Shown here one piece after another: positions 3,185 through 29,251 of a DNA stretch of 29,252 nt. Below the pieces are notes generated by a model. The model had not been told where the DNA came from and made no database searches. It saw nothing but the letters and a program-made list of their open reading frames with translations. This DNA is from a virus. Made by a program: the position numbers and the translations under genes. The stretch is taken from positions 1 to 29,252 of the IMG/VR virus record IMGVR_UViG_3300023049_000165. The stretch is one strand, 5' to 3'. Position 1 is the first letter of the stretch. Every line of letters starts with the position of its first letter.

Positions 3185-4489
3185 CTACAGAATTAGAAAT
3201 AATACAAGACTTATAACAACTGCTGCTGTTGCTATTGTTATTTGTTTCTTCTTGTACCACTTAGTTTTTTCTTTAACAGGCGGTTTTGGCTCTGGCTCTG
3301 GCTTAGGTGCTGGTTTTGGCTCTGGCACTGGCTCTGGCACTGGCTTTGGTTCCGGCGCTGGCTTAGGTGCTGGTACCGGCTCCTGCTTTTCTTTAAATAT
3401 AGGAAGTAAAAAGACAGATGACACCATGTTAGTGGTTGATTCGCTGTACTTTCCTGCGAATTCAACTTTGGTGCACTGGTCTGTTAAAAGGCTAATTGCT
3501 CTCTTTACTTCTTCGCGACTAGTAAGTTTTGCTGAACCGTCTAGCAACATTGCCATTATGCCTGCAACAACAGGACACGCTGCTGATGTTCCGCTGGCAC
3601 TTCCTAGTTCGTCTTTTTCTCGATAGTTTGCTACTGTGCCGGCATGTCCAGGCGCCCACATAGTTAAGTCGGTACCGTAGTTTGTATACGAAGCCGGACC
3701 AACACTTAACGGATCATTAGGGAACCGTTTTCTTAGGGCGCCGATTGCCATAACGTCTGTATACCCTGCGGGGTATCTAACTTCGTTCTCACGATTATTT
3801 CCGGCAGCAGCAATACAAACTACGCCTGCATCAATTAACTTCCTCATACTAATATTATATGAATGACTAGGTGTCCGAGAGCTAAAGCTCATAGAAAGAA
3901 TAGACGGTCTGTCGTCTTCTTTGTTTATATGATGTTTTAAGATAGTATCGAGTACTTTTAGTCCCTCGGAATGCGTAAAATTATATCGACAGTTGTAAAG
4001 TTTAACAGACTTTGCTGTGCCGTGCTTCCAGCCGCCGGCGCACCCTGCGCACATTGTTCCGTGCTGAGGCGACCGAACATCACCTCCGTAATCTTTTCCA
4101 TCGTAACTAAAGATAGTTTCTACCCGGCCGCCGAACTCTTCGTGGTCTAACCGTATGCCACTATCCATAATGTAAATATCTACGCCACTGGCCTTGTTAG
4201 GGAAGTGATATTCGTTACCTTTAATCCCAGAAACGCTAGGCAAGAACCAATTCTCAACATTTGTTTGCTGATTAAGGGCTCCTTGCTTACTAAGTTCTAA
4301 ATTATCAACGTTGTCTTCGCCAGGCTCTTCTACGTAAAGTACTCCAGGAATGGCAAGGAGGTCTTCTTTACTTTTTTCTGTCTCCACAATTACTAATTCA
4401 GGAATTGCTTGGGGCTTGCCTACTTTGCTGCATACTTTCTCTAGTTCTTTACGTACAGATGCGTCAGAGATTTCTATAATGTATTTCAT
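3185..4489 (-). CDS. Subtilisin-like (S8) serine protease with C-terminal membrane anchor
   Basis: The 434-residue protein has an I9-like propeptide (about residues 1-60, ending in a VLYVEEPGE-type segment). The S8 catalytic domain carries Asp109 (IMDSG), His143 (QHGTMCAG), oxyanion Asn231 (AAGNN) and Ser302 (GTSAACPV). A Pro/Glu/Lys repeat linker spans residues 371-404. A basic cluster (KWYKKK) and a final hydrophobic segment of about 19 residues form a C-terminal anchor. There is no N-terminal signal peptide. The protein looks tail-anchored, with the protease on the cytoplasmic side, unless a special export route is used. A GAGGA ribosome-binding site and a GATAAATA box (4513-4520) precede the start, suggesting late expression. 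Substrates are unknown; prohead or host protein processing is possible. Confidence 0.9.
   Translation of the reverse strand: MKYIIEISDASVRKELEKVCSKVGKPQAIPELVIVETEKSKEDLLAIPGVLYVEEPGEDNVDNLELSKQGALNQQTNVENWFLPSVSGIKGNEYHFPNKASGVDIYIMDSGIRLDHEEFGGRVETIFSYDGKDYGGDVRSPQHGTMCAGCAGGWKHGTAKSVKLYNCRYNFTHSEGLKVLDTILKHHINKEDDRPSILSMSFSSRTPSHSYNISMRKLIDAGVVCIAAAGNNRENEVRYPAGYTDVMAIGALRKRFPNDPLSVGPASYTNYGTDLTMWAPGHAGTVANYREKDELGSASGTSAACPVVAGIMAMLLDGSAKLTSREEVKRAISLLTDQCTKVEFAGKYSESTTNMVSSVFLLPIFKEKQEPVPAPKPAPEPKPVPEPVPEPKPAPKPEPEPKPPVKEKTKWYKKKQITIATAAVVISLVLFLIL
3278..3379 (-). repeat. Proline-rich repeat linker of the protease
   Basis: The DNA consists of degenerate tandem units that read on the plus strand as variations of GGCTCTGGC and GGTGCTGGT. 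They encode alternating Pro with Glu, Lys, Ala and Val (PAPKPAPEPKP style). It is probably a rigid spacer between the catalytic domain and the membrane anchor, and its length is likely to vary between relatives through repeat slippage. Confidence 0.8.
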
Positions 4490-4824: not shown

Positions 4825-5100
4825 TCATGAAAACTTTAACACGAAGAACGTATGCTGTTTCACTGTCATGTATCCAAAAACTATTACGTCTCTTGAAGCA
4901 AGAAGTTGGTTACTTTGGTCTATTGAACTTATTTCTACACAATTCTCTTTGACCCATTGACCTACTGTACTTCTCTCCTTCCATGCTTCAATAGATGCGT
5001 TGATAAGATAATCAGTTGACATGACATCAACGCTGAAACGATGTACGATATATCTCTTATAGACAACATCGTTTATTACGATATTCTCCTGGTTCTTCAT
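4825..5100 (-). CDS. Small hypothetical protein, paralogue of the next gene downstream
   Basis: This is a 91-residue protein of unknown function. Its ATG overlaps the stop of gene 52 as ATGA, so it is probably translationally coupled to the topoisomerase medium subunit. The core VHRFSVDVM, an amphipathic helix with EAWKERSTVGQWVKEN and a C-terminal strand TFFVLKFS are mirrored in the 4545-4814 product. The coupling suggests co-expression with the topoisomerase but proves no interaction. Confidence 0.7.
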   Translation of the reverse strand: MKNQENIVINDVVYKRYIVHRFSVDVMSTDYLINASIEAWKERSTVGQWVKENCVEISSIDQSNQLLASRDVIVFGYMTVKQHTFFVLKFS

Positions 5101-6446
5101 AAGTTCAGAGCACGTAGGTCGTTAATCAAAATGTCTTCAAATGTGTTCTTGCTGTAGTCGGCGATATCTTGTTTTAGTTCTGCACTCTTTTTGCGCAACT
5201 TAGCAATCTCTTCTTTGGTCAATGACCGCATGGGCAGCGTTAAGAATTTTTCTACTCTGCCTTCAAGCAGCGAAGAATATGTTTCAGCTTGTTTTACTAT
5301 AACAGATTCTGCCTGATTACGCAACTCAATTTCTTCTTCGATTACGCCTTTGATGAATTTAATCTTTGCGTCGGCATAATCCATGTCGTCCTGCATCTTT
5401 TGCAGAATATAGTTCTTGCGTAGCTCGTTATATTCAATACGCTTTGCGTACCACGTGTCCAGCAAGTGCTTGAGACTTTCAAAGATAGTAATTTTGTTGT
5501 TCTCGTCAATGCAAGTGAAGTTCTCGGAAATTCTTTTGATTAACTTAAACTTGTTGAGTATCCACTCGTCGTCCTTTTCGCCGAACGCACGATCCACGTG
5601 TACTTCGAATTCAAACTGATCATTGTCTGACAAATCATCGTAGTCTTTGATGATCTTGTCCTCCAATAGTTTGTCCAAAACGGCCTGGTACTGCTTGAGC
5701 GTATAGCCCACTGGGATACTTGTAATCAGTATGCGATGCTTTGTCTTGCGCGTAAAGCTGCCTTTGACCTGCCACTGTACTGAGCTGTCACCTTTCTCAA
5801 CTGTACACTGCATGCCTTCCCAATGTGGAGTTAGGTTCGCTGTGATGCGCTTGCCTTCCGCTTTCTGTCTGACCCACTTGGCAATCTCTGAACTCTTGCG
5901 TGGGAAGATTTTCTGTGCGTAGCCTATGCTCACGCCTTCTGCTCCGTTGATTGCCAGCATGGGCAACACAGGCACAAAGAAGCGAGGCTCAATTTTGGAT
6001 CCTTCAAAACTCTGATGCATCAAGTTGACTGTGTCTTCTTTGACAAACAGGTTCTTGAGAATAGGATTCATCCTTGCAAAGATATAGCGTGTTGCTGCTG
6101 CGTCGTTGATGAACGCTGAACCAAAGTTGCCGTCGCCTTCTAGCAGGGGAATATTGTTGCCACATCCTACGTAGTCAGCAGTCATATTGACAATAGTGCC
6201 TTCCAGGCTACCATGCAAATACTGTGAATAGTCTTGCACCCTTGGGCCTAGGTTTGACACTTTTACAAACTTGTCGACGTTCTGCTGAAGCACAGTATAC
6301 AGGATTTTACGACTGGCATTCTTCTGCCCATCTATGTAGTTTGCTAACTTCCGCACGTTGTCGTACACACTAAACGAGATATATTCGTTTTTAAAGAAGT
6401 CTTCAAGCTGGACTACTGGGGTTGCTTGTTGATTAGTTGTTGTCAT
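5097..6446 (-). CDS. 52: DNA topoisomerase II medium subunit (T4 gp52-like)
   Basis: The 449-residue GyrA/ParC-type subunit is close to the 441 residues of T4 gp52. After a short polar N-terminus comes the winged-helix DNA breakage domain: GSLEGTIVNMTADYVG, then NIPLLEGDGNFGSAF and DAAATRYIFARM, where R120-Y121 are the conserved Arg and the transesterifying Tyr. The middle has the tower region (AINGAEGVSIGYAQ) and the C-terminal half is a long coiled coil ending RALNL. I chose ATG at 6446 over an in-frame ATG at 6476, because AGGAC precedes it and the earlier codons lie within the upstream endonuclease gene, which it overlaps by 14 nt. It works with the gp39/gp60-like subunit at 7159-11011. 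Codons 183-201 contain the 54-nt sequence copied in inverse orientation at 19440. Confidence 0.93.
   Translation of the reverse strand: MTTTNQQATPVVQLEDFFKNEYISFSVYDNVRKLANYIDGQKNASRKILYTVLQQNVDKFVKVSNLGPRVQDYSQYLHGSLEGTIVNMTADYVGCGNNIPLLEGDGNFGSAFINDAAATRYIFARMNPILKNLFVKEDTVNLMHQSFEGSKIEPRFFVPVLPMLAINGAEGVSIGYAQKIFPRKSSEIAKWVRQKAEGKRITANLTPHWEGMQCTVEKGDSSVQWQVKGSFTRKTKHRILITSIPVGYTLKQYQAVLDKLLEDKIIKDYDDLSDNDQFEFEVHVDRAFGEKDDEWILNKFKLIKRISENFTCIDENNKITIFESLKHLLDTWYAKRIEYNELRKNYILQKMQDDMDYADAKIKFIKGVIEEEIELRNQAESVIVKQAETYSSLLEGRVEKFLTLPMRSLTKEEIAKLRKKSAELKQDIADYSKNTFEDILINDLRALNL
5846..5899 (-). repeat. 54-nt segment of gene 52 duplicated in inverse orientation at 19440-19493
   Basis: These 54 bases are an exact reverse complement of plus-strand 19440-19493. 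Here they encode the gp52 residues SSEIAKWVRQKAEGKR and neighbours. The match ends sharply on both sides. Confidence 0.9.
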
Positions 6447-7149
6447 TTTGGTCCTGTTTGTGTTTGCAGTTGTCAAAGTGCCATCTTGGCATTATTCCGT
6501 TTCCACCTGCTTTGCCGCAATGCGGACAAATAACTAACTTACGTTTCTGTCCTACATTTGACTGTCTTAGTTTCTCACGGTGCTCATTAGACTTTGTTTT
6601 GCCTCTGGCGGCCGCTGATAACTTCTTACGGGTTTCTTGAGTAAACTCGGCCTTCCAGCCCTCAGCGATTAACTTCTGTCTCGCCTTAGAATAGTTTTCT
6701 CGGTGTTCTACTGTTCTTCGCTTGCCTTTATTGCCCGCTGAAATATTTTGTCGCCATTCTTTAGTAGTAGCACCAAAGTGTTTTCCTTTATTTGATTCTG
6801 ATATTTTCTTTTTCTGCTCATCTGTTTTGGGGATGCCTGCAACGTTAAATTTAGTAGATGCTGCTTTACAGGCGTTATAATATTTTTTACTCGCCGCAAC
6901 TTCATATTTTTCGTGAAGATATATTTCTCTTTTCTCGGCTTCTTGTCTTGTCTCGAAGACGTTATCTATCTTTTTTGTACACCTTCTTTTGATTTTGCCC
7001 CATTCACTTATCCATTGTTTGCTTTGCACAGACCCCATATACGTGTCGTCCTTGGGTTCTACGCCAGCTGGCGCCGTTCGAACTCCTATATATTTCATAT
7101 CGTTTATAGGGTCGTATAGTTCGTAAGTATAATGTTTTCTAGGGCACAT
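6433..7149 (-). CDS. GIY-YIG homing endonuclease with NUMOD3-like repeats and C-terminal zinc finger
   Basis: The 238-residue protein has an N-terminal GIY-YIG-type domain (YTYELYDPINDMKYIGV) and a lysine-rich middle with repeated NUMOD3-like DNA-binding motifs (KISESNKGK, NISAGNKGK, KLSAAARGK, KLRQSNVGQ). A C-terminal finger, CPHCGKAGGNGIMPRWHFDNC, completes it. The gene is squeezed between the topoisomerase C-terminal half (9 nt away) and gene 52, whose first 14 nt it overlaps. The last codons, which encode the Lys/His-rich tail, also hold the gene 52 ribosome-binding site, so the insertion preserves expression of the neighbour. A second endonuclease with the same finger overlaps the gene 39 start at 11008. 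Confidence 0.88.
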   Translation of the reverse strand: MCPRKHYTYELYDPINDMKYIGVRTAPAGVEPKDDTYMGSVQSKQWISEWGKIKRRCTKKIDNVFETRQEAEKREIYLHEKYEVAASKKYYNACKAASTKFNVAGIPKTDEQKKKISESNKGKHFGATTKEWRQNISAGNKGKRRTVEHRENYSKARQKLIAEGWKAEFTQETRKKLSAAARGKTKSNEHREKLRQSNVGQKRKLVICPHCGKAGGNGIMPRWHFDNCKHKQDQNDNN

Positions 7150-7158
7150 GTTTTTATT

Positions 7159-7911
7159 CTATATCCTCATTACGTCGAACGGCGCTGCGTTTAATATTTG
7201 TTCTTTGCGAAAGTCTATTGTACTGCCTGAGAACCATTGTGTAAAGAGCTCTGTGTCGGTAATTGACACTGTTGGTAACATTTCATTAAGAGTATCTTTA
7301 GCAATAACAACCTGTAAGTCCTTTTCACTCCAAGAACCTAAACCTTTCTGATATTGCACGTCTAGCTTGCTATCAATCTTGTTCACGTCACCAAACGTGT
7401 ACGCCCACTCTTTGATCACGTTGTTCTTCTTGCCGATAGCAATAGGCGTTCTTAACAACTTCATCTTACCGTTATTTAGGTGATCCGGAAAATACTTGTG
7501 CATAAACAGTGACACTAGACCGCGTATTCTACTACCGTCTGCATCGGCGTCTGTTGCGATACATATCTCAGCGTCTGGAAAGGTGGTGATAATGCTGTAT
7601 AATTCGCTCAGCTCTTTGTTAGCCATAAACTTCTGGTGACTAACTTCCAGCACATTCAGAGGTACGCCTTTGAGTGCGTAGAATGCGTTACCTTTGCGTC
7701 CTAAACATTTGATCAAACCACCTGAGGCCGAGTTGTGGCTTACTATACCTGATGCAAGTGTAAAGGTTTTCTGTCCTGTTACAGATATGTCAATCATATT
7801 GACATATTCGTCGTCGTCTACTACATCGTCTATGTCTACTAATTCATAGAACAGTTCAAAAAAATCATCGTCTACAACAAACCTCTCGTCTATGTTAATT
7901 TCTGCATTCAT
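7159..7911 (-). CDS. C-intein fused to the C-terminal part of the topoisomerase II large subunit (TOPRIM, gp60-like)
   Basis: Residues 1-60 are a C-intein: an acidic leader (DERFVVDDDFFELFYEL) and intein block F/G, GQKTFTLASGIVSHN, with the splice-site His-Asn at 59-60. Residue 61 (Ser) begins the extein SASGGLIKC, the second half of the TOPRIM motif EGDSASGG. The TOPRIM acidic triplet is at D121, D123 and D125 (ATDADADGS), followed by QYQKGLGSW typical of GyrB-type subunits. After trans-splicing with the product of 9329-11011 the extein would be about 595 residues, similar to fused gp39-gp60 proteins. The start overlaps the end of the intervening endonuclease by 17 nt. Without splicing, neither half has a complete TOPRIM active site. 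Confidence 0.92.
   Translation of the reverse strand: MNAEINIDERFVVDDDFFELFYELVDIDDVVDDDEYVNMIDISVTGQKTFTLASGIVSHNSASGGLIKCLGRKGNAFYALKGVPLNVLEVSHQKFMANKELSELYSIITTFPDAEICIATDADADGSRIRGLVSLFMHKYFPDHLNNGKMKLLRTPIAIGKKNNVIKEWAYTFGDVNKIDSKLDVQYQKGLGSWSEKDLQVVIAKDTLNEMLPTVSITDTELFTQWFSGSTIDFRKEQILNAAPFDVMRI
7732..7911 (-). other. C-intein of a split intein
   Basis: Sixty codons ending in the obligatory His-Asn, followed by Ser+1 (codon 7731-7729). Block F/G reads EYVNMIDISVTGQKTFTL then ASGIVSHN. The first 35 residues carry at least a dozen Asp/Glu and little positive charge, whereas the N-intein at 9332-9796 is rich in Lys/Arg. Opposite charges commonly drive association of split-intein halves; here the polarity is the reverse of that in Npu DnaE. 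Confidence 0.9.
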
Positions 7912-9277
7912 TGTATTTTTCCATTATTAATTGTGTATACTTTTTAACTTCGTCGTCAAAATTAGCTGTGTCAAAAACAACGTAATATTCAAATCCATGT
8001 TTTTCTGCTACTTCTCTTTTTATTTTGTCTTTTTCTTTCCTTTCCTTGAGCGTACTGAATTTCGACTCCATTAAGTTATTTTTATTGTAATGCCAGAATG
8101 ATCCGTGATACTCTATTATAACATTAATTTCCGGAATAGTAAAGTCGTAAAGCCTGTATCCATAATTGCTGTCCATAATAAAATACTCTTTCTTTCCATG
8201 TGCACCTATACAAATTTCGATGTCTGTCGGAAGCATCTTTACTAGTTTATTATAAAAATTGTCTAGAGATTCCTTCGAAGCACAGTTTCTACCAATTGCC
8301 TCTGCTTGTCTTTTGCAGTATAACTTGTACCGTTCTATACCCGAGCTCAACCCGTATTTTTCTATACAACTTTGTTTTGTGAACACCGGTCGTGATGTTA
8401 TGAATTCTTTTCTCGCGTACTCGGGATTTTCATAGCCGTTTTTAATCCAGTACTCGATACACATTTTATTTTTTTCTTTGTTATAAAACGGACTCTTTGT
8501 TGTGTATTCTTCCCATTGCCGTTGTCCTTCTTCTTTTCCGTACCGAGAAATAAATTTTCCTAACGTCTGTCTTGATGCATTTACGTGTTCACTATATAAC
8601 TTTTCACCTAGTACTTTTCCGTATCTTTTTACTTTTGCTTCTAAGTTACAGGAAGCTTTCTGTTGAGACATTTCTTTCCATCGAGCGTTGCCATCTTCAT
8701 CCCCTAATGTATCGATGTAATACTGCTTCGAGTGTGTATATTTTAACTTCTCACGATACTTGTCATAATCCTCAGCAGTTTTATAGGTTTCAAACCAGTC
8801 TCGGGTTCTGCGTTGGTTAAAAGCATAGGCTTCGGCGGACTTGTGATTACTTCTATAAAAAGGTGATGAGTTTCGTGAATGAATGAGCTGTCGTGCTTCG
8901 TCGCCGTTTACATCGTAACAAAGTTTCATGAATTCTACCGAATTTGGATTAATACCTTTTCTGTCTTGTTTACATTTAGTTGCTGTTATTGATTCGTCAC
9001 CTTTGCATAAGACTAAGTCGTTAGGCAGACTTAATAATTTAAGGTACAACATATTATCTTTCACAACAAAATCATATTCTGTGTTTTTTGAAAATGTGTT
9101 GCAAATGTTACAACAGTAGTCACTAGGTACAATCCCATTAACATATTTTTCTATGTACTCGGCCGTAGTTAGATTATAGTTTCTTTTTATATATCGTTGT
9201 ACTGATGTTTTTTTGCCCCTAGCACTTAGAGTATTAAAGTTATCTTTTAACTTTACATTTGCAATCATTTTTATCAT
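7895..9277 (-). CDS. Vsr-like homing endonuclease between the split-intein halves
   Basis: The 460-residue protein begins with SARGKKTSVQRYIKRNY and has several motifs of the form YG.E.G..(R/K)W or KYG, probably DNA-binding repeats (GKEEGQRQWEEY, GLSSGIERYKLY). The C-terminal about 110 residues resemble very-short-patch-repair nucleases: YDFTIPEINVIIEYHGSFWH supplies Asp/Glu/His residues, followed by KEKDKIKREVAEKHGFEYYVV. This matches the Vsr-related family described for fractured genes, where a free-standing endonuclease gene separates split-intein halves. A GAAGGAG ribosome-binding site, hidden in a hairpin, and a GATAAATA box precede the start. ATG at 9277 was preferred over ATG at 9268 by spacing to that site. 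Confidence 0.85.
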   Translation of the reverse strand: MIKMIANVKLKDNFNTLSARGKKTSVQRYIKRNYNLTTAEYIEKYVNGIVPSDYCCNICNTFSKNTEYDFVVKDNMLYLKLLSLPNDLVLCKGDESITATKCKQDRKGINPNSVEFMKLCYDVNGDEARQLIHSRNSSPFYRSNHKSAEAYAFNQRRTRDWFETYKTAEDYDKYREKLKYTHSKQYYIDTLGDEDGNARWKEMSQQKASCNLEAKVKRYGKVLGEKLYSEHVNASRQTLGKFISRYGKEEGQRQWEEYTTKSPFYNKEKNKMCIEYWIKNGYENPEYARKEFITSRPVFTKQSCIEKYGLSSGIERYKLYCKRQAEAIGRNCASKESLDNFYNKLVKMLPTDIEICIGAHGKKEYFIMDSNYGYRLYDFTIPEINVIIEYHGSFWHYNKNNLMESKFSTLKERKEKDKIKREVAEKHGFEYYVVFDTANFDDEVKKYTQLIMEKYNECRN

Positions 9278-9315
9278 TTAGCGGAATCTCCTTCTACAAC
9301 AAATATATTTATCAT
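9274..9315 (-). pseudogene. Relic of the uninterrupted topoisomerase intein-insertion site
   Basis: A 14-codon frame reads MINIFVVEGDSAK then stop. IFVVEGDSA is the TOPRIM motif as it would read with no intein, with Ser-Ala directly after EGD. The functional copy at about 9797-9820 reads IFVVEGD followed by Cys1 of the intein. The two copies differ at synonymous third positions, so this is a diverged duplicate and not an assembly echo. Its GAAGGAG also acts as the ribosome-binding site of the endonuclease starting at 9277. Confidence 0.75.
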
Positions 9316-9324
9316 AGAAGGAGA
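9287..9324 (-). promoter_or_regulatory. RBS-sequestering hairpin with internal late promoter, endonuclease gene
   Basis: TCTCCTTCTA and TAGAAGGAGA form a perfect 10-bp stem (9315-9324 with 9287-9296) around an 18-nt loop. The 3' arm contains GAAGGAG, the ribosome-binding site of the gene at 9277. The loop contains GATAAATA (9306-9313) on the coding strand. Read-through transcripts would hide the site; transcripts starting at the internal box would lack the 5' arm and be translatable. T4 uses the same device for I-TevI and lysozyme. Confidence 0.75.
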
Positions 9325-9328
9325 CCTT

Positions 9329-11011
9329 TCACACAACTGAAACAACAAAATCGCCTGCAGTGATTTTGTTTGCGTGAACCCGTAACATTCCTGTCTTTCT
9401 AAATACAACAAAATAGTCGTTGTCTGTGTAATTAATGATGCCGCCGTTTAAATGCAACTGCTGATTGTTATTTGAGATTACTTCGTAATACTCAGTTGTA
9501 CTTCGAGCCTTGGATCTAACCAACTTGTATCTTGATTTATCAGCAGCAATATCTTTTCCAGTAACAAACTTGAATTGCTTGTCTGAAGTGTCGTATACAT
9601 ACATTCTGTGCTTGTGGCTGCATTCTACATCGCCAACTGCTGTCTTTATCTTCACACGCTTGCGTAGACTTTGTGTTTTAGATACAACGGTTTCTGTCTT
9701 GCCGTCACCGGAGATAATAATATCTCCCTGGTTAACATCCTTTAGTGCAACAGGCTGGCCGTTACCACGGATTATCAGTGTGTCTTCTGCTAAACAGTCG
9801 CCTTCTACAACGAAGATACGTTGCGTGCCGCCGATAGCTGCTACGTACTTGTCACTCTTGACTTTTTTCTTCTTTTCTAGCTTGTTGAGATCCTTCTTTG
9901 CTTCAAGATCGTCCTTCATCTTTGTGTAGGCTAGGATTTCGTCAATCAAGTCGTCGTTCTTCATCAGCTTGGCAGCAATCTTCTTGGCATCTACTTCGCC
10001 GATTGCATCGCGACATTCTGCTGTGGAGTTTGTCACACGTTCTTTGGTCTGACTGTCAAACTTGAGCTGTCCAAACCCGTTGATCACTGCGTGTATGCGC
10101 AGGTGCTGCTTGAGCCTCGCAGGAGTGATGTCCACCTTCTTACGCCGCTTTAACACGTCACGTAGTTCACTGATAACAGCACCAGCAAAGTAATCAATGT
10201 GTGTGCCTGATTTTACACCAAGACCGTTTACCAGCGAATACGTTTGAAACGCACCTTCTGACTTGGTGATGCCAAACTGTGCGTGTTCTGTTTGGAACGT
10301 GTCGCACTCGCCAAAGAAGTCTGTGAACTTGACTTTTACTGCTGTACTATTAAACTTGAACTTTACTGTAGGAAACGCAAGTGCCAGTGACTTGACGCGT
10401 TCTTCAATTAACTTCACGTGTGTTTCGTCAATTGTCTCTAGTCCAAAGAACTCATAGTCCGGCGTGAACTTAACAGTTGTGCCTTTGCGTGAAGTGGCCT
10501 TGGTAGTAATCTTGTCTACCTGGCCGTCTTTGCCTACTAGCTTGACTTCCTTGGTGCCGTCGGCACTCTTAGCTTCGAACTTAGATGAGGTCACAAACGT
10601 AATCATCGACCCAACACCGTTCATGCCAATTGACTCACGGTTTTCATCGTCAAAGTTCGAACCTGCTCGAGCGCGTGTAAATGCAGCAACCATCTGGTAT
10701 TCAGCACCATCTGGTGTTTCTACCTTGTTTGCCGGGATGCCACGGCCGTTGTCGCTGACTGTGATAGATCCAAAGCTGTCTACGCTCACATCAATCTTGT
10801 CAGCAAACTCCTTGTTAGTGCGAACGTGTTCGTCGATGGAGTTGTCAATGATCTCGTTGATTATCTTAAGTAGACCAGCTACTAGTTTTACCTGCTTGAA
10901 CTCTGCATCAATAAAAACCGTTTCTTCCTGTACAACTTGGCTACCTCCGTACATGCTGAATCTCTGCCGAATATGGAGAGTATCGCTCAAAATCTTAAAA
11001 TTGTCTGTCAT
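9329..11011 (-). CDS. 39: N-terminal part of topoisomerase II large subunit (gp39-like) fused to N-intein
   Basis: The 560-residue product has a GHKL ATPase domain (EIIDNSIDEH near residue 50, then SDNGRGIPA and GMNGVGSM), a transducer domain and the first half of the TOPRIM motif, IFVVEGD, ending at residue 405. Cys406 starts an N-intein of 155 residues (CLAEDTLII, then block B ECSHKHRMYVYD), after which the frame stops. Trans-splicing to the product of 7159-7911 would restore EGD|SASGG. The protein is the ATP-hydrolysing, gyrase B-like subunit; T4 makes it from genes 39 and 60. The start at 11011 overlaps the stop of the upstream GIY-YIG gene as ATGA and is preceded by GAGGAA. A relic of the same start lies at 12015. 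Confidence 0.94.
   Translation of the reverse strand: MTDNFKILSDTLHIRQRFSMYGGSQVVQEETVFIDAEFKQVKLVAGLLKIINEIIDNSIDEHVRTNKEFADKIDVSVDSFGSITVSDNGRGIPANKVETPDGAEYQMVAAFTRARAGSNFDDENRESIGMNGVGSMITFVTSSKFEAKSADGTKEVKLVGKDGQVDKITTKATSRKGTTVKFTPDYEFFGLETIDETHVKLIEERVKSLALAFPTVKFKFNSTAVKVKFTDFFGECDTFQTEHAQFGITKSEGAFQTYSLVNGLGVKSGTHIDYFAGAVISELRDVLKRRKKVDITPARLKQHLRIHAVINGFGQLKFDSQTKERVTNSTAECRDAIGEVDAKKIAAKLMKNDDLIDEILAYTKMKDDLEAKKDLNKLEKKKKVKSDKYVAAIGGTQRIFVVEGDCLAEDTLIIRGNGQPVALKDVNQGDIIISGDGKTETVVSKTQSLRKRVKIKTAVGDVECSHKHRMYVYDTSDKQFKFVTGKDIAADKSRYKLVRSKARSTTEYYEVISNNNQQLHLNGGIINYTDNDYFVVFRKTGMLRVHANKITAGDFVVSVV
9332..9796 (-). other. N-intein of a split intein
   Basis: The 155 codons start at Cys1 (9796). 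Block A is CLAEDTLIIRGNGQPVAL and block B is GDVECSHKHRMYV, with the His expected for the N-S acyl shift. No endonuclease domain is inserted; the protein ends at a stop and the endonuclease is a separate gene. The segment is rich in Lys and Arg, complementing the acidic C-intein. The length is larger than most N-inteins (about 90-125), so some C-terminal residues may be dispensable. Confidence 0.9.
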
Positions 11012-11925
11012 ACGTTCCTCTTGTGTTTACAATTATTAAAATGATACCGTGTCATATTAGGGCCTCTTCCTTTCTTGCTACAGTGCGGGCATTCTGTTTC
11101 TAGCCTGCCTCTTGTATACCCCGTCGGCATTTTTTCATCCTGTGCAATCCTAAGTTCCTGGACTCCGTCATTAGCCCAAGTAGAGCCATAATAAGGATTT
11201 CCGTCACCGCTCATTCTTTCTGAATGTAGTTTGTTTATTGACTTATTACCGTCAATCGATGCGCTTCTGATATTTTTTATTTGATCTATTGTTTCTTGGG
11301 TGCGCTTCTTACCTAGATTGCCTTTAGAAATCTTTTCTCTAACCTCTGGCCTCTTCGCCGGGTTGTTTTCACCTGCTAGCATCTTGCCCGCTCGCTGATA
11401 CGACGTTAATCCGTCTTGCCCTTTCTTACTGCGCACCTCTTGTATTTTACTGCCACGTAGTAAATGTAGCTCTGGCATAGTATCCAACGCTTTTTGATAA
11501 GCGACTTGATAATCATTTAATCCGCCGGTGTGTACTTTCTTTAAACGAGTTTGTTTTGTCTTGGTCGCAGCGTACTGATACGATGTTATACCGTGTTTAT
11601 CAGGAATTGTTCTAACTACGTTATTGTAGATCGTGCCACAACTTCCGAGACTCATATTAATACATTTTTCGTTTTTAATTATTCTTTTTATAACTCGTTG
11701 TTCCCATTTTACTGCGCTGGTCGCGTCACTAAATGTCTTGCGTATTTGGTAATCAAAGTCATCTTTTCCGTACACTTCGATTAGCTGTTTAATTATTCTA
11801 GACGAAGTAAAATACTTCTTCCAAAATAATTTGGGGTTAGCATCACGCTTGCTAAATTTAACCCCGTAATAAAATAGCCCGGTTGTCTTGTTTTTAACTA
11901 TGTAAGTATAAGGAATATATTCCAT
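11008..11925 (-). CDS. GIY-YIG homing endonuclease with C-terminal zinc finger, at the start of gene 39
   Basis: The 305-residue protein has a GIY-YIG-type N-terminus (YTYIVKNKTTGLFYYGVKF), where the second motif is YYG, and an FTSSRIIKQLIEVYGKDDF helix. A middle with KISKGNLGKKRTQETIDQI is a NUMOD3-like module. A C-terminal CPHCSKKGRGPNMTRYHFNNC finger is nearly the same as in the endonuclease at 6433. It overlaps the gene 39 start by 4 nt, and its tail supplies that gene's ribosome-binding site. Upstream lies a relic of the gene 39 start, so the element seems to have entered at the 5' end of gene 39 and brought its own copy of the start. Confidence 0.87.
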   Translation of the reverse strand: MEYIPYTYIVKNKTTGLFYYGVKFSKRDANPKLFWKKYFTSSRIIKQLIEVYGKDDFDYQIRKTFSDATSAVKWEQRVIKRIIKNEKCINMSLGSCGTIYNNVVRTIPDKHGITSYQYAATKTKQTRLKKVHTGGLNDYQVAYQKALDTMPELHLLRGSKIQEVRSKKGQDGLTSYQRAGKMLAGENNPAKRPEVREKISKGNLGKKRTQETIDQIKNIRSASIDGNKSINKLHSERMSGDGNPYYGSTWANDGVQELRIAQDEKMPTGYTRGRLETECPHCSKKGRGPNMTRYHFNNCKHKRNV

Positions 11926-11974
11926 ACGTTGCTCTCCCGCTATACTTATTTATCAAACGGTTGTCAACGTATGG
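11922..11974 (-). promoter_or_regulatory. Start-codon-sequestering hairpin with internal late promoter
   Basis: CCATACGTTG (11965-11974) and CAACGTATGG (11922-11931) form a perfect 10-bp stem; the 3' arm includes the ATG at 11925. The 33-nt loop contains the ribosome-binding region and GATAAATA (11947-11954). A TTGACA at 11963-11968 with TATAGC 17 nt away gives a weaker early promoter overlapping the same loop. Late transcripts starting inside the loop would lose the blocking arm. Confidence 0.7.
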
Positions 11975-12015
11975 CAAAATTCTTTGTCGCTCAATAGCTT
12001 AAAATTGTCTGACAT
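11953..12015 (-). pseudogene. Relic of the gene 39 start
   Basis: A 20-residue frame starts MSDNFKLLSD, while functional gene 39 starts MTDNFKILSD. The first 30 nt agree at 26 positions. It has its own AAAGGA ribosome-binding site and stops at 11953. It looks like the original 5' end of gene 39, left behind when the GIY-YIG gene inserted with a new start. It may still be translated as a short peptide. Confidence 0.75.
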
Positions 12016-25792: not shown

Positions 25793-25823
25793 TGGAGGCG
25801 CGGACGGGATTCGAACCCGCGTT
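25793..25823 (-). repeat. Duplicated 3' end of the tRNA gene
   Basis: These 31 nt are identical to 26612-26642 and read on the minus strand as the T-arm, 3' acceptor strand and CCA of the tRNA-Cys gene. The HNH gene lies exactly between the two copies, and its stop codon overlaps this one. Confidence 0.9.
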
Positions 25824-26571
25824 AGCTGTTATCGAACTCGTTAACTTGGACTATTAGTTGCTCTAGTGTTATCGAACAATTAGTGTACTTGCGTTGGTTT
25901 ATTGTGTGCGGTGTTAACGCACAGTTGACTGGGTGCGAGATGTAATATGGATCGACGTTTTCTAAAAAGCCTTGCTTAACTGAAAACTTATGGTCTCTGC
26001 TTATCCCATTTGGGTTGTCTTTTTTATTCTTTGCGCTATACCAGCCGTGCTGTTCGATTAATTCTAGTGTCAACAAGTTCGGATAGTTCTTAACATCAAA
26101 ATTAAACTTACATCTTATTTTATAGTCTTCAAATGCAGTTCTATTTTTCTTGTTGTTTGCAAGCCAACATGCCTTGCAACAGAACTTTGTTTTTGTTTGA
26201 GTTGTAAATATAGTTTCGCATTGCCTGCAACTCTTTTCTTCTCTATCTTTGCCTATAAAAGCTAACCAGCATTTTCTACTACAGAATTTACCCTTTGATG
26301 TAACAAACGTGTTCTTGCACCTTGGACAAGACTTCTCTTCTTTCACAATAGGCGAGAGATTCTTCCCGCGTCTTTTGTGATTCTTGTCGCCGGAGATTTT
26401 TTCTACATGCTCTTTAGAAAGTGTTCTTCCTGATAGCGTAGCACTTACCCTAGATTTTATATCTTCAGTGCGCACTCTGCTGTTAGCACACTTTCTAGAA
26501 CAGAATCTTTTCGGCTGCCATTTGCTGTAGTTGTCGAACGTTATTTGACACTTGGGGCATTCTATAATCAT
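25822..26571 (-). CDS. HNH homing endonuclease with zinc fingers
   Basis: The 249-residue protein has several Cys4 zinc-binding modules (CPKCQITFDNYSKWQPKRFC, CPRCKNTFV...FCSRKCW, CRQCETIF...FCCKACW) and a NUMOD-like KRVSATLSGRTLSKEH-type segment. The C-terminal HNH nuclease reads GISRDHKFSV, then ISHPVNCALTPHTINQRK. A GATAAATA box and a start-hiding hairpin precede it. It is directly next to the tRNA-Cys gene on one side and a copy of that gene's 3' end on the other, so the tRNA gene is the likely target. Confidence 0.88.
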   Translation of the reverse strand: MIIECPKCQITFDNYSKWQPKRFCSRKCANSRVRTEDIKSRVSATLSGRTLSKEHVEKISGDKNHKRRGKNLSPIVKEEKSCPRCKNTFVTSKGKFCSRKCWLAFIGKDREEKSCRQCETIFTTQTKTKFCCKACWLANNKKNRTAFEDYKIRCKFNFDVKNYPNLLTLELIEQHGWYSAKNKKDNPNGISRDHKFSVKQGFLENVDPYYISHPVNCALTPHTINQRKYTNCSITLEQLIVQVNEFDNS

Positions 26572-27564: not shown

Positions 27565-27699
27565 ACTTGCTAAAAAACCCGGCCAGGCCAGGCCAGGCCA
27601 CTTGTCTATTCCTCCTTTAGTGTGCCAGATCTTGTATCCTAAGTTCTTAATTGCCTGGACTAAACTTACACCAGAATTTATGTATCCTAAAAACTCTTC
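27550..27699 (-). pseudogene. Start-less fragment resembling the end of a rhodanese domain
   Basis: A 49-codon frame without a start codon reads EEFLGYINSG, then SLVQAIKNLGYKIWHTKGG and IDKWPG. The pattern S...A...L...GY.....GGI..W is seen at the end of rhodanese domains. It runs on through the GGCCA repeats and into the tRNA-like gene before TGA. Weak evidence; it could be chance. Confidence 0.25.
27572..27600 (-). terminator. GC-rich repeat followed by a U run, likely terminator
   Basis: Four GGCCA units (27581-27600), read on the minus strand as TGGCC repeats ending GGCCGGG, are followed by TTTTTT (27577-27572). The repeats can fold on themselves. Position suits termination after the pentapeptide genes and before the tRNA-like gene. 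Confidence 0.55.
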
Positions 27700-28487
27700 T
27701 CAGTGTACTGCCATCCTTGGCACCTGTCAACCTCTTTTGAAGATGTAACTGCGCCTTTTAGTATCGCCCACGTCAGTTGCTGATCTGACATAATCACATT
27801 GGTTATGTCGACATTACGCAAGTCAATGTTACGCAAGTCAGTGTTGCTCAAGTCCGCATTGCTCAAGTCAGCATCGCGCAAGTCAGTACCACTCAAATCA
27901 GCACCACTCAACTCAGCGCGACGCAAGTCAGCATCGCGCAAGTCAGCATCGCGCAAGTCAGCAAATCTCAAGTCAGCAAATCTCAAGTGAGCATCACTTA
28001 AGTCAGCACTACGCAAGTCAACATTTCTCAAGTCAGCACCCCACAAGTCAGCACCACTCAAGTCCGCATTGCTCAAGTCCGCATTGCTCAAGTTAGCAAC
28101 TCTCAAGTCAGCACTCCACAAGTCAGCACCACTCAAGTCAACATTACTCAAGTTAGCATAAATCAAGTTAACATTACGCAAGTCAACATTTCTCAAGTCA
28201 GTGTTGCTCAAGTCAGCACGGCGGAAGTCAGCACCACGCAAGTTAGCACCACGCAAGTCTGCATTGCTCAAATCAGCACCACGTAAGTCGGCACTACGCA
28301 AGTCAGCACTACGCAAGTCAGCACCACGTAAGTCAGCACCACGCAAGTCAGCACCACGCAAGTTAGCACCACTCAAGTCAGCACCACGTAAGTTAGCACC
28401 ACTCAAATCAGCACGTTTGCCATCTGCTACTCCATTAAGCCATTGCTGGTGTAAGCGGACTACTTGGTCTAGTTCTTCTTGGTTCAT
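27687..28487 (-). CDS. Pentapeptide-repeat protein, second tandem copy
   Basis: The 266-residue protein starts MNQEELDQVVRLHQQWLNG, then ADGKRADLSGANLRG and about 40 A(D/N)LxX pentapeptide units forming a right-handed quadrilateral beta-helix. It ends SDQQLTWAILKGAV and a polar tail. I start it at 28487, where ATGA overlaps the stop of the upstream copy; the longer frame to 28535 re-reads the end of that copy. Such proteins (MfpA, Qnr) can mimic DNA and bind type II topoisomerase; whether this one does is unknown. Confidence 0.88.
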   Translation of the reverse strand: MNQEELDQVVRLHQQWLNGVADGKRADLSGANLRGADLSGANLRGADLRGADLRGADLRSADLRSADLRGADLSNADLRGANLRGADFRRADLSNTDLRNVDLRNVNLIYANLSNVDLSGADLWSADLRVANLSNADLSNADLSGADLWGADLRNVDLRSADLSDAHLRFADLRFADLRDADLRDADLRRAELSGADLSGTDLRDADLSNADLSNTDLRNIDLRNVDITNVIMSDQQLTWAILKGAVTSSKEVDRCQGWQYTEKSF

Positions 28488-29251
28488 CTCATGCTCTCTT
28501 TTGAAGATGTAACTGCGCCTTTTAGTATCGCCCACGTCAGTTGCTGATCTGACATAATCACATTGGTTATGTCGACATTACGCAAGTCAATGTTACGCAA
28601 GTCAGCACCACTCAAGTCCGCATTGCTCAAGTCAACATTTCTCAAGTCAGCACCCCACAAGTCAACATCTCGCAAGTCAGTACCACTCAAGTCCGCATTG
28701 CTCAAGTTAGCACCACTCAAGTCCGCATTGCTCAAGTCAGTACCACTCAAATCGGCGCGGCGCAAGGCAGTACCACTCAAATCAGCACCACTCAAATCGG
28801 CGCGGCGCAAGTCAGCATCGCGCAAGTCAGTGTTGCTCAAGTCCGCATTGCTCAAGTTAGCAAATCTCAAGTGAGCAAATCTCAAGTTAGCATCACGCAA
28901 GTCAGTGTTGCTCAAGTCCGCATTGCTCAAGACAGCACCCCACAAGTCAGCACCACTCAAGTCCGCATTGCTCAAGACAGCACCAAGTAAGTTAGCACTC
29001 CACAAGTCAGCACTACGCAAGTCAGCGTTGCTTAAGTCAGAACCACGCAAATCAACATCACGCAAGTCCGCATACTTCAAGTCAGCACCACGTAAGTCAG
29101 CACCACGTAAGTCGGCACTACGCAAGTTAGCACCACGTAAGTTAGCACCACGTAAGTCAGCACCACTCAAGTCAGCACGTTTGCCATCTGCTACTCCATT
29201 AAGCCATTGCTGGTGTAAACGGACTACTTGGTCTAGTTCTTCTTTGTTCAT
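28484..29251 (-). CDS. Pentapeptide-repeat protein, first tandem copy
   Basis: The 255-residue protein starts at ATG 29251, one base from the window end, so its promoter is outside. The N-terminus MNKEELDQVVRLHQQWLNG and the C-terminus NVIMSDQQLTWAILKGAV are almost the same as in the following gene; the repeat region differs in order and number of units. The pair arose by tandem duplication with later repeat exchange. ATGA overlap couples both genes. Confidence 0.88.
   Translation of the reverse strand: MNKEELDQVVRLHQQWLNGVADGKRADLSGADLRGANLRGANLRSADLRGADLRGADLKYADLRDVDLRGSDLSNADLRSADLWSANLLGAVLSNADLSGADLWGAVLSNADLSNTDLRDANLRFAHLRFANLSNADLSNTDLRDADLRRADLSGADLSGTALRRADLSGTDLSNADLSGANLSNADLSGTDLRDVDLWGADLRNVDLSNADLSGADLRNIDLRNVDITNVIMSDQQLTWAILKGAVTSSKESMR

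What the first reader, a model, noticed from the sequence alone, without database searches (positions are those of the whole stretch)
7159..11011. Topoisomerase large subunit split by a split intein, with a Vsr-like endonuclease gene between the halves
Seen: the 9329-11011 product ends IFVVEGD followed by Cys1 and an N-intein; the 7159-7911 product begins with a C-intein ending SHN followed by SASGG. Joining rebuilds the TOPRIM motif EGDSASGG. A separate 460-residue endonuclease gene with a Vsr-like C-terminus lies between. Known: this arrangement is called a fractured gene, described for other phage-type genes in marine metagenomes. Inference: topoisomerase activity depends on trans-splicing, so replication control is tied to the intein. 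The basic N-intein and acidic C-intein suggest charge-driven association with polarity opposite to Npu DnaE.
Basis: partly seen in the sequence, partly recalled or inferred. Interest (0 to 1): 0.88.

Follow-up and report, generated by a model that had tools for sequence, protein, structure and literature searches.

The report
Phage topoisomerase split by mobile intein
A phage's DNA-untangling enzyme is made as two separate proteins that an embedded self-splicing element should stitch together, with a DNA-cutting 'homing' gene sitting between them; the same arrangement, at exactly the same spot, turns up in at least fifteen other phage genomes and comes with an odd copy of the target site in front of the cutter gene.

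Summary
A T4-type topoisomerase II large subunit (gp39-like) is cut inside its TOPRIM motif (EGD|SASGG). The 405-aa N-extein is fused to a 155-aa N-intein, and a 60-aa C-intein to the 190-aa C-extein. A 460-aa EDxHD (Vsr-like) endonuclease gene lies between. Twenty-two close relatives carry the gene uninterrupted at exactly that codon, so this is an occupied homing site inside a clade of empty ones. I found at least 15 other fractured large-subunit genes cut at the same site, including one in a 462-kb phage. They share a topoisomerase-specific endonuclease N-terminal module, whose nuclease domain is sometimes HNH instead. Two have lost most of the endonuclease yet keep the split gene. This is a fractured gene, a known kind, in a host gene I could not find reported. 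New here: the endonuclease has a T4-like late promoter and a hairpin burying its ribosome site, as for I-TevI, and the spacer repeats the uninterrupted target (24/27 nt). An inverted 'exon echo' after the N-half stop recurs across the family (total score 125 versus 78.6±4.5 background; none in gp41/nrd controls). Splicing, cleavage and repression are untested; the replication-control idea is unsupported.

The parts
9797..11011 (-). N-extein of topoisomerase II large subunit (405 aa, ends RIFVVEGD)
   Evidence: GHKL ATPase and GyrB domains; 71-82% identical to uninterrupted relatives
9332..9796 (-). N-intein (155 aa, Cys1, block-B SxxH; stop at 9329-9331)
   Evidence: aligned with N-inteins of other fractured genes; Foldseek top hits are intein/Hint folds although the model is weak
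9285..9326 (-). 19-bp RNA hairpin (5' arm 9326-9308, loop 9307-9304, 3' arm 9303-9285) burying the endonuclease ribosome-binding site
   Evidence: -22.2 kcal/mol, z -6.0; without the 5' arm -1.8 kcal/mol
9306..9313 (-). T4-type late promoter GATAAATA inside the hairpin
   Evidence: most enriched 8-mer upstream of ORFs in relative G002 (19 seen, 0.82 expected); upstream of 5 genes in the window
9280..9306 (-). direct copy of the uninterrupted target site (IFVVEGD|SA), containing the SD GAAGGAGA (9294-9287)
   Evidence: 24/27 nt identical to the L020 empty site, 21/27 to its own exon junction, 0 of 20000 shuffles; best elsewhere in the window 19/27
9305..9326 (-). inverted copy of the exon end (reads IFIIEGD on the other strand), directly after the N-half stop
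7895..9277 (-). homing endonuclease gene, 460 aa: topoisomerase-site N-terminal module with CxxC, YGxE repeats, C-terminal EDxHD (Vsr-like) nuclease
8027..8188 (-). E364-D378-E389-H396-D417 catalytic stretch of the endonuclease
   Evidence: invariant in 8 family members
7732..7911 (-). C-intein (60 aa, acidic, ends SHN)
7162..7731 (-). C-extein of topoisomerase II large subunit (190 aa, starts SASGG; stop at 7159-7161)
5097..6476 (-). topoisomerase II small subunit (gp52-like), partner subunit, intact

Best explanation
The locus is a fractured gene: a mobile unit made of an N-intein, a free-standing EDxHD homing endonuclease gene and a C-intein, inserted at codon EGD|S of a T4-type topoisomerase II large subunit. 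The two halves are translated separately; the intein halves pair and trans-splice a 595-aa enzyme with a restored TOPRIM motif (inferred). The endonuclease cuts the uninterrupted EGDSASGG site of co-infecting phages, and repair copies the unit in (inferred). Expression of the endonuclease appears set up as for I-TevI. On long transcripts a hairpin hides its ribosome site. A late promoter inside that hairpin makes transcripts lacking the 5' arm. The copy of the target site overlapping promoter and ribosome site is probably an operator that the endonuclease itself binds. Shown by sequence: anatomy, empty relatives, family, hairpin, promoter motif, site copy. Inferred: splicing, homing, autorepression.
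For: Empty sites at the exact codon in 22 relatives. The window lies inside a 100/100-supported clade with 15 intact genes, so the unit was most simply gained. At least 15 other phage loci are cut at the same site. Cys1, S/TxxH, HN and Ser+1 are kept. Purifying selection on the exteins: pN 0.108 against pS 0.742. L142 and L146 keep both halves with only C-terminal scraps of the endonuclease. EDxHD residues and fold. Topoisomerase-linked endonucleases share an N-terminal module even when the nuclease is HNH. Hairpin, promoter and site copy match the I-TevI scheme described in PMC2988022.
Against: No experiment. Block-B Thr is Ser in the window and the block-F His is absent, so speed or efficiency may be low. 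The N-intein model is weak (pLDDT 63). The spacer copy is an operator only by analogy; in most relatives the copy is inverted and lacks the C-extein side.
Confidence: 0.88

Rival explanations
1. The two halves work as unspliced subunits, as T4 gp39 and gp60 do; the intein remnants are only association domains.
For: T4's large subunit is naturally in two unspliced pieces with a homing-endonuclease relic between them. L147 and L163 even carry a T4-type break as well.
Against: The T4 break lies well downstream of EGDSA and has its own tail (VNENDE..NGKWI), absent here. The break here is inside the catalytic EGD|S, and splice residues are kept over very divergent loci.
Confidence: 0.05
2. Broken gene or assembly artefact: the large subunit is a pseudogene or the contig is mis-joined.
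For: The window is a single metagenomic virus record of 29 kb.
Against: Both extein ORFs are open, full length and under purifying selection; the same architecture recurs in independent contigs.
Confidence: 0.02
3. About the spacer only: the target-site copy is not an operator. It is a footprint of how the endonuclease gene was captured, or an RNA element (RBS hairpin, pairing with the exon) that resembles EGD codons because GAAGGAGA is a good Shine-Dalgarno.
For: The SD lies inside the direct copy in the window and in L163. The echo persists in L142 and L146, where the endonuclease is deleted.
Against: The match runs well beyond the SD (IFVV and SA). Most echoes are inverted and cannot be SDs. 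The gp52 echo of L025 (19/24, p<0.001) has no EGD motif. gp41 and nrd fractured genes show none.
Confidence: 0.4
4. The intein is a regulatory switch that ties phage replication to splicing.
For: The enzyme cannot be complete without splicing.
Against: Twenty-two close relatives have the intact gene in the same gene order; the control elements seen all concern the endonuclease.
Confidence: 0.04

Closest known systems
Fractured genes of marine metagenomes (Dassa et al. 2009, doi 10.1093/nar/gkp095; cited in PMC10448857 and PMC7090010; text not held here)
   Same: Conserved enzyme gene cut by a split intein with a free-standing endonuclease gene between the halves; endonuclease of the Vsr-like/EDxHD kind
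   Different: Host gene here is the phage topoisomerase II large subunit, with a topoisomerase-specific endonuclease N-terminal module and a copy of the target site in front of the endonuclease. I could not check whether that paper lists a topoisomerase.
I-Bth0305I (PDB 3R3P), EDxHD homing endonuclease
   Same: E-D-x-H-D catalytic residues, modular long DNA-binding part
   Different: I-Bth0305I is an intron-type homing endonuclease (3R3P is deposited as 'Mobile intron protein'); here the gene stands free between intein halves
I-TevI of phage T4 (regulation)
   Same: Late promoter, hairpin hiding the ribosome site, homing-site-like sequence at the promoter (15/20 nt in I-TevI per PMC2988022; 24/27 here)
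   Different: GIY-YIG enzyme in a group I intron; here an EDxHD enzyme between split-intein halves
T4 gp39/gp60 with mobA
   Same: Same enzyme gene broken in two with a homing endonuclease gene at the break
   Different: T4 pieces are not spliced; different break point; no intein
LR756500.1, uncultured 462-kb phage (L025)
   Same: Same split site, related endonuclease N-terminal module
   Different: Nuclease domain is HNH-like; its gp52 gene is fractured too

Membership tests
Fractured gene (split intein + free endonuclease gene) | Conserved enzyme gene interrupted at a conserved motif, intact alleles in relatives | tested here: met
   22 empty sites at EGD|S
Fractured gene (split intein + free endonuclease gene) | N-intein and C-intein with splice residues, on separate ORFs | tested here: met
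   Cys1, SxxH, HN, Ser+1
Fractured gene (split intein + free endonuclease gene) | Separate endonuclease ORF between the halves | tested here: met
Fractured gene (split intein + free endonuclease gene) | Halves trans-splice | not testable with these tools
   needs co-expression
EDxHD (Vsr-like) homing endonuclease | E, D, H, D catalytic residues and Vsr-like fold | tested here: met
   similarity to solved structures is weak individually (E 0.015; Foldseek E 0.06-0.4)
EDxHD (Vsr-like) homing endonuclease | Cuts the uninterrupted allele and mobilises the unit | not testable with these tools
   indirect only: sporadic occupancy, window inside an empty clade
I-TevI-like expression control | RBS-burying hairpin and a late promoter that removes its 5' arm | tested here: met
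   (sequence and energy only)
I-TevI-like expression control | Homing-site-like operator at the promoter, bound by the endonuclease | tested here: inconclusive
   site copy present; binding not testable
T4 gp39/gp60-type unspliced break | Break downstream of EGDS with VNENDE tail | tested here: not met
   found instead as a second break in L147 and L163

The most novel reading that the evidence does not exclude
Fractured topoisomerase genes are a widespread family of mobile units. Each carries, in the spacer after the N-half stop, an echo of its own target site that its endonuclease reads as an operator, so the element senses its own expression level and limits it. Such a device has not, to my knowledge, been described for split-intein elements.
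Probability: 0.4. Interest if true: 0.8.

Novelty: new variant of a known kind. Interest (0 to 1): 0.64.

Why it matters
It adds an essential-type phage replication enzyme, cut within its catalytic motif, to the fractured-gene class, and supplies a set of at least 16 loci with empty relatives, domain-swapped endonucleases and endonuclease-loss derivatives. Together these show gain, persistence and domestication steps of a naturally split gene. The recurrent echo of the target site gives a testable regulatory idea for split-intein elements. The set also offers new candidate split inteins with long N-inteins and acidic C-inteins for protein ligation work.

Tried and rejected
Single-protein search with the endonuclease in viral contigs gave nothing, so alignments and degenerate patterns were used. 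Scan of 84,980 bacterial/archaeal genomes for VEGDC..(D/N/H/Y)T gave 65 stretches, none a GyrB or topoisomerase intein. Apparent match of Vibrio phage topoisomerases to C-intein residues 43-60 was spurious: those genes are contiguous. First shuffle control for the site copy used a spacer cut one base short and was redone. A search for a direct exon copy in gp41 and nrd fractured genes was negative, and so was the inverted one. Fusing the intein halves for structure prediction was not attempted, because changed sequences are not accepted. Rfam found only the tRNA. Replication-control reading rejected for lack of any supporting feature.

Full report
Observation. The window is a 29-kb virus record. 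On its minus strand lie, in order, a GIY-YIG gene (11008-11925), the N half of a topoisomerase II large subunit (9329-11011), a 460-aa ORF (7895-9277), the C half (7159-7911), another GIY-YIG-type gene (6433-7149) and an intact small subunit (5097-6476). The N half ends RIFVVEGD, then Cys1 and 155 residues of N-intein in all. The C half starts with 60 residues ending SHN, then SASGG. The joined protein is 595 aa.

Is it an inserted unit? In 22 close relatives the gene is uninterrupted and residue 405 is followed at once by residue 1 of the C-extein. A tree places the window (84% identical to L002) inside a fully supported clade with 15 intact genes, so gain in the window's lineage is the simplest reading. 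The exteins remain under purifying selection (pN 0.108, pS 0.742 against L002; synonymous sites are near saturation). Cys1, a block-B SxxH, the terminal His-Asn and Ser+1 are present, so splicing is expected but not shown.

The endonuclease. No Pfam or NCBIfam family matches. With seven relatives from other fractured phage genes, E364, D378, E389, H396 and D417 are invariant. A profile finds 3R3P, which I identify as I-Bth0305I, first in the PDB (E 0.015), and the predicted fold is nearest to AbaSI and Vsr (model confidence modest). It is therefore an EDxHD enzyme.

A family. LR756500.1, a 462-kb uncultured phage, has the large subunit cut at the same point, with an endonuclease sharing the N-terminal module (31% over residues 56-260) but with an HNH-like C-terminus; its gp52 is fractured too. 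A degenerate EGDC pattern and an alignment of topoisomerase-linked endonucleases then brought in many more. Counting only loci where the N half was seen, at least 15 distinct ones are cut at EG(D/L/N)|S: L025, L131, L132, L134, L141, L142, L146, L147, L150, L151, L153, L154, L156, L157 and L159 (for L141 and L156 the C half was not in the stretch read). Their endonucleases share an N-terminal module (KCxxCN...CYG...NPNSxEF...NNKSPFYxxNHKS) not seen in gp41- or nrd-linked ones, which I read as the target-recognition part. L142 and L146 keep both halves, but between them only 93 and 47 residues of the endonuclease's C-terminus survive (62-69% identical to relatives): the cutter has been lost and the split gene persists.

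Control of the endonuclease. Between the N-half stop and the endonuclease ATG lie 51 bases that fold into a 19-bp hairpin (-22.2 kcal/mol, z -6.0) burying the Shine-Dalgarno GAAGGAGA. GATAAATA at 9313-9306 sits within it. This octamer is the most enriched 8-mer upstream of ORFs in relative G002 (19 against 0.82 expected) and precedes five genes in the window, so it is very likely the late promoter. A transcript from it would lack the 5' arm; that part alone folds at -1.8 kcal/mol. This is the arrangement described for I-TevI, I-TevII, I-TevIII, segB and mobE (PMC2988022).

The echo. The same spacer reads ATATTTGTTGTAGAAGGAGATTCCGCT = IFVVEGD|SA, the uninterrupted target, 24/27 identical to the L020 empty site and 21/27 to the window's own exon junction (0 of 20000 shuffles). 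Because it spans the insertion point it cannot be a mere copy of the local N-half exon. I-TevI's operator is likewise a homing-site look-alike at its late promoter (PMC2988022). In relatives the spacer holds the locus' own exon end, mostly inverted and directly after the stop: L150, L152, L148, L157, L142 and others. L163 has a direct FTEGD copy together with TATAAATA in the hairpin loop (z -6.7). Summed over 17 topoisomerase loci the score is 125 against 78.6 (sd 4.5, highest of 900 draws 94); seven gp41/nrd loci give 29 against 28.2. The fractured gp52 of L025 has its own echo (19/24 nt, p<0.001), without any EGD motif, which argues against a Shine-Dalgarno coincidence. Several of the loci are related, so the true number of independent cases is smaller than 17, and some single loci (L141, L147, L151, L153, L025 gp39) show no significant echo on their own. 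Operator is my preferred reading, by analogy; footprint or RNA element remain open.

Rivals and novelty. T4 gp39/gp60 is an unspliced split of the same gene, but at a different place and with a distinct tail. L147 and L163 carry that break as well, so their large subunit comes in three pieces. The general arrangement is known (Dassa et al. 2009, not held). I found no report of a fractured topoisomerase in the held library, which is not proof of absence. I therefore call it a new variant of a known kind.

Noticed in passing
window 11008-11925 and upstream 11926-11975: GIY-YIG gene just upstream of gp39 has its start codon buried in a hairpin (-22 kcal/mol, z -6.4) with GATAAATA in the loop, a second I-TevI-like control unit.
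   Followed up: partly
window 6433-7149: Another GIY-YIG/NUMOD3 homing gene sits between gp39 and gp52; most of the HEG-free relatives compared have only a few to about 20 bases between gp39 and gp52 (L002, L015 and L020 have longer gaps), so three homing genes crowd around one enzyme gene.
   Followed up: partly
L147 5995-7924, L163 5809-7911: Large subunit broken twice: split intein at EGD|S and a T4-type gp39/gp60 break with the VNENDE..NGKW tail and another ORF (a Vsr-like endonuclease in L163) at the second break.
   Followed up: partly
L025 7705-10427: gp52 small subunit is also fractured by a split intein with a Vsr-like endonuclease in the same phage.
   Followed up: partly
L025 5851-6972, L154 4680-5822, L156 4680-5804: Topoisomerase-linked endonucleases with the same N-terminal module but an HNH-like C-terminus: apparent nuclease-domain swap at constant target.
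   Followed up: partly
L142 1995-2350, L146 4700-4900: Endonuclease deleted down to its C-terminal scrap, split topoisomerase retained.
   Followed up: yes
L037 3996-6403: Bacterial-type GyrB split by an intein at the same EGD|S point with no endonuclease; the halves overlap by one base. Could also be a frameshifted contiguous intein.
   Followed up: no
window 25822-26571: HNH-type ORF preceded by GATAAATA, next to a tRNA-Leu gene.
   Followed up: no
window 3185-4489: Subtilisin-like protease gene with a proline-rich tail and C-terminal membrane segment, with its own GATAAATA promoter.
   Followed up: no
window 27687-29251: Two tandem pentapeptide-repeat proteins sharing start and end sequences.
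   Followed up: no
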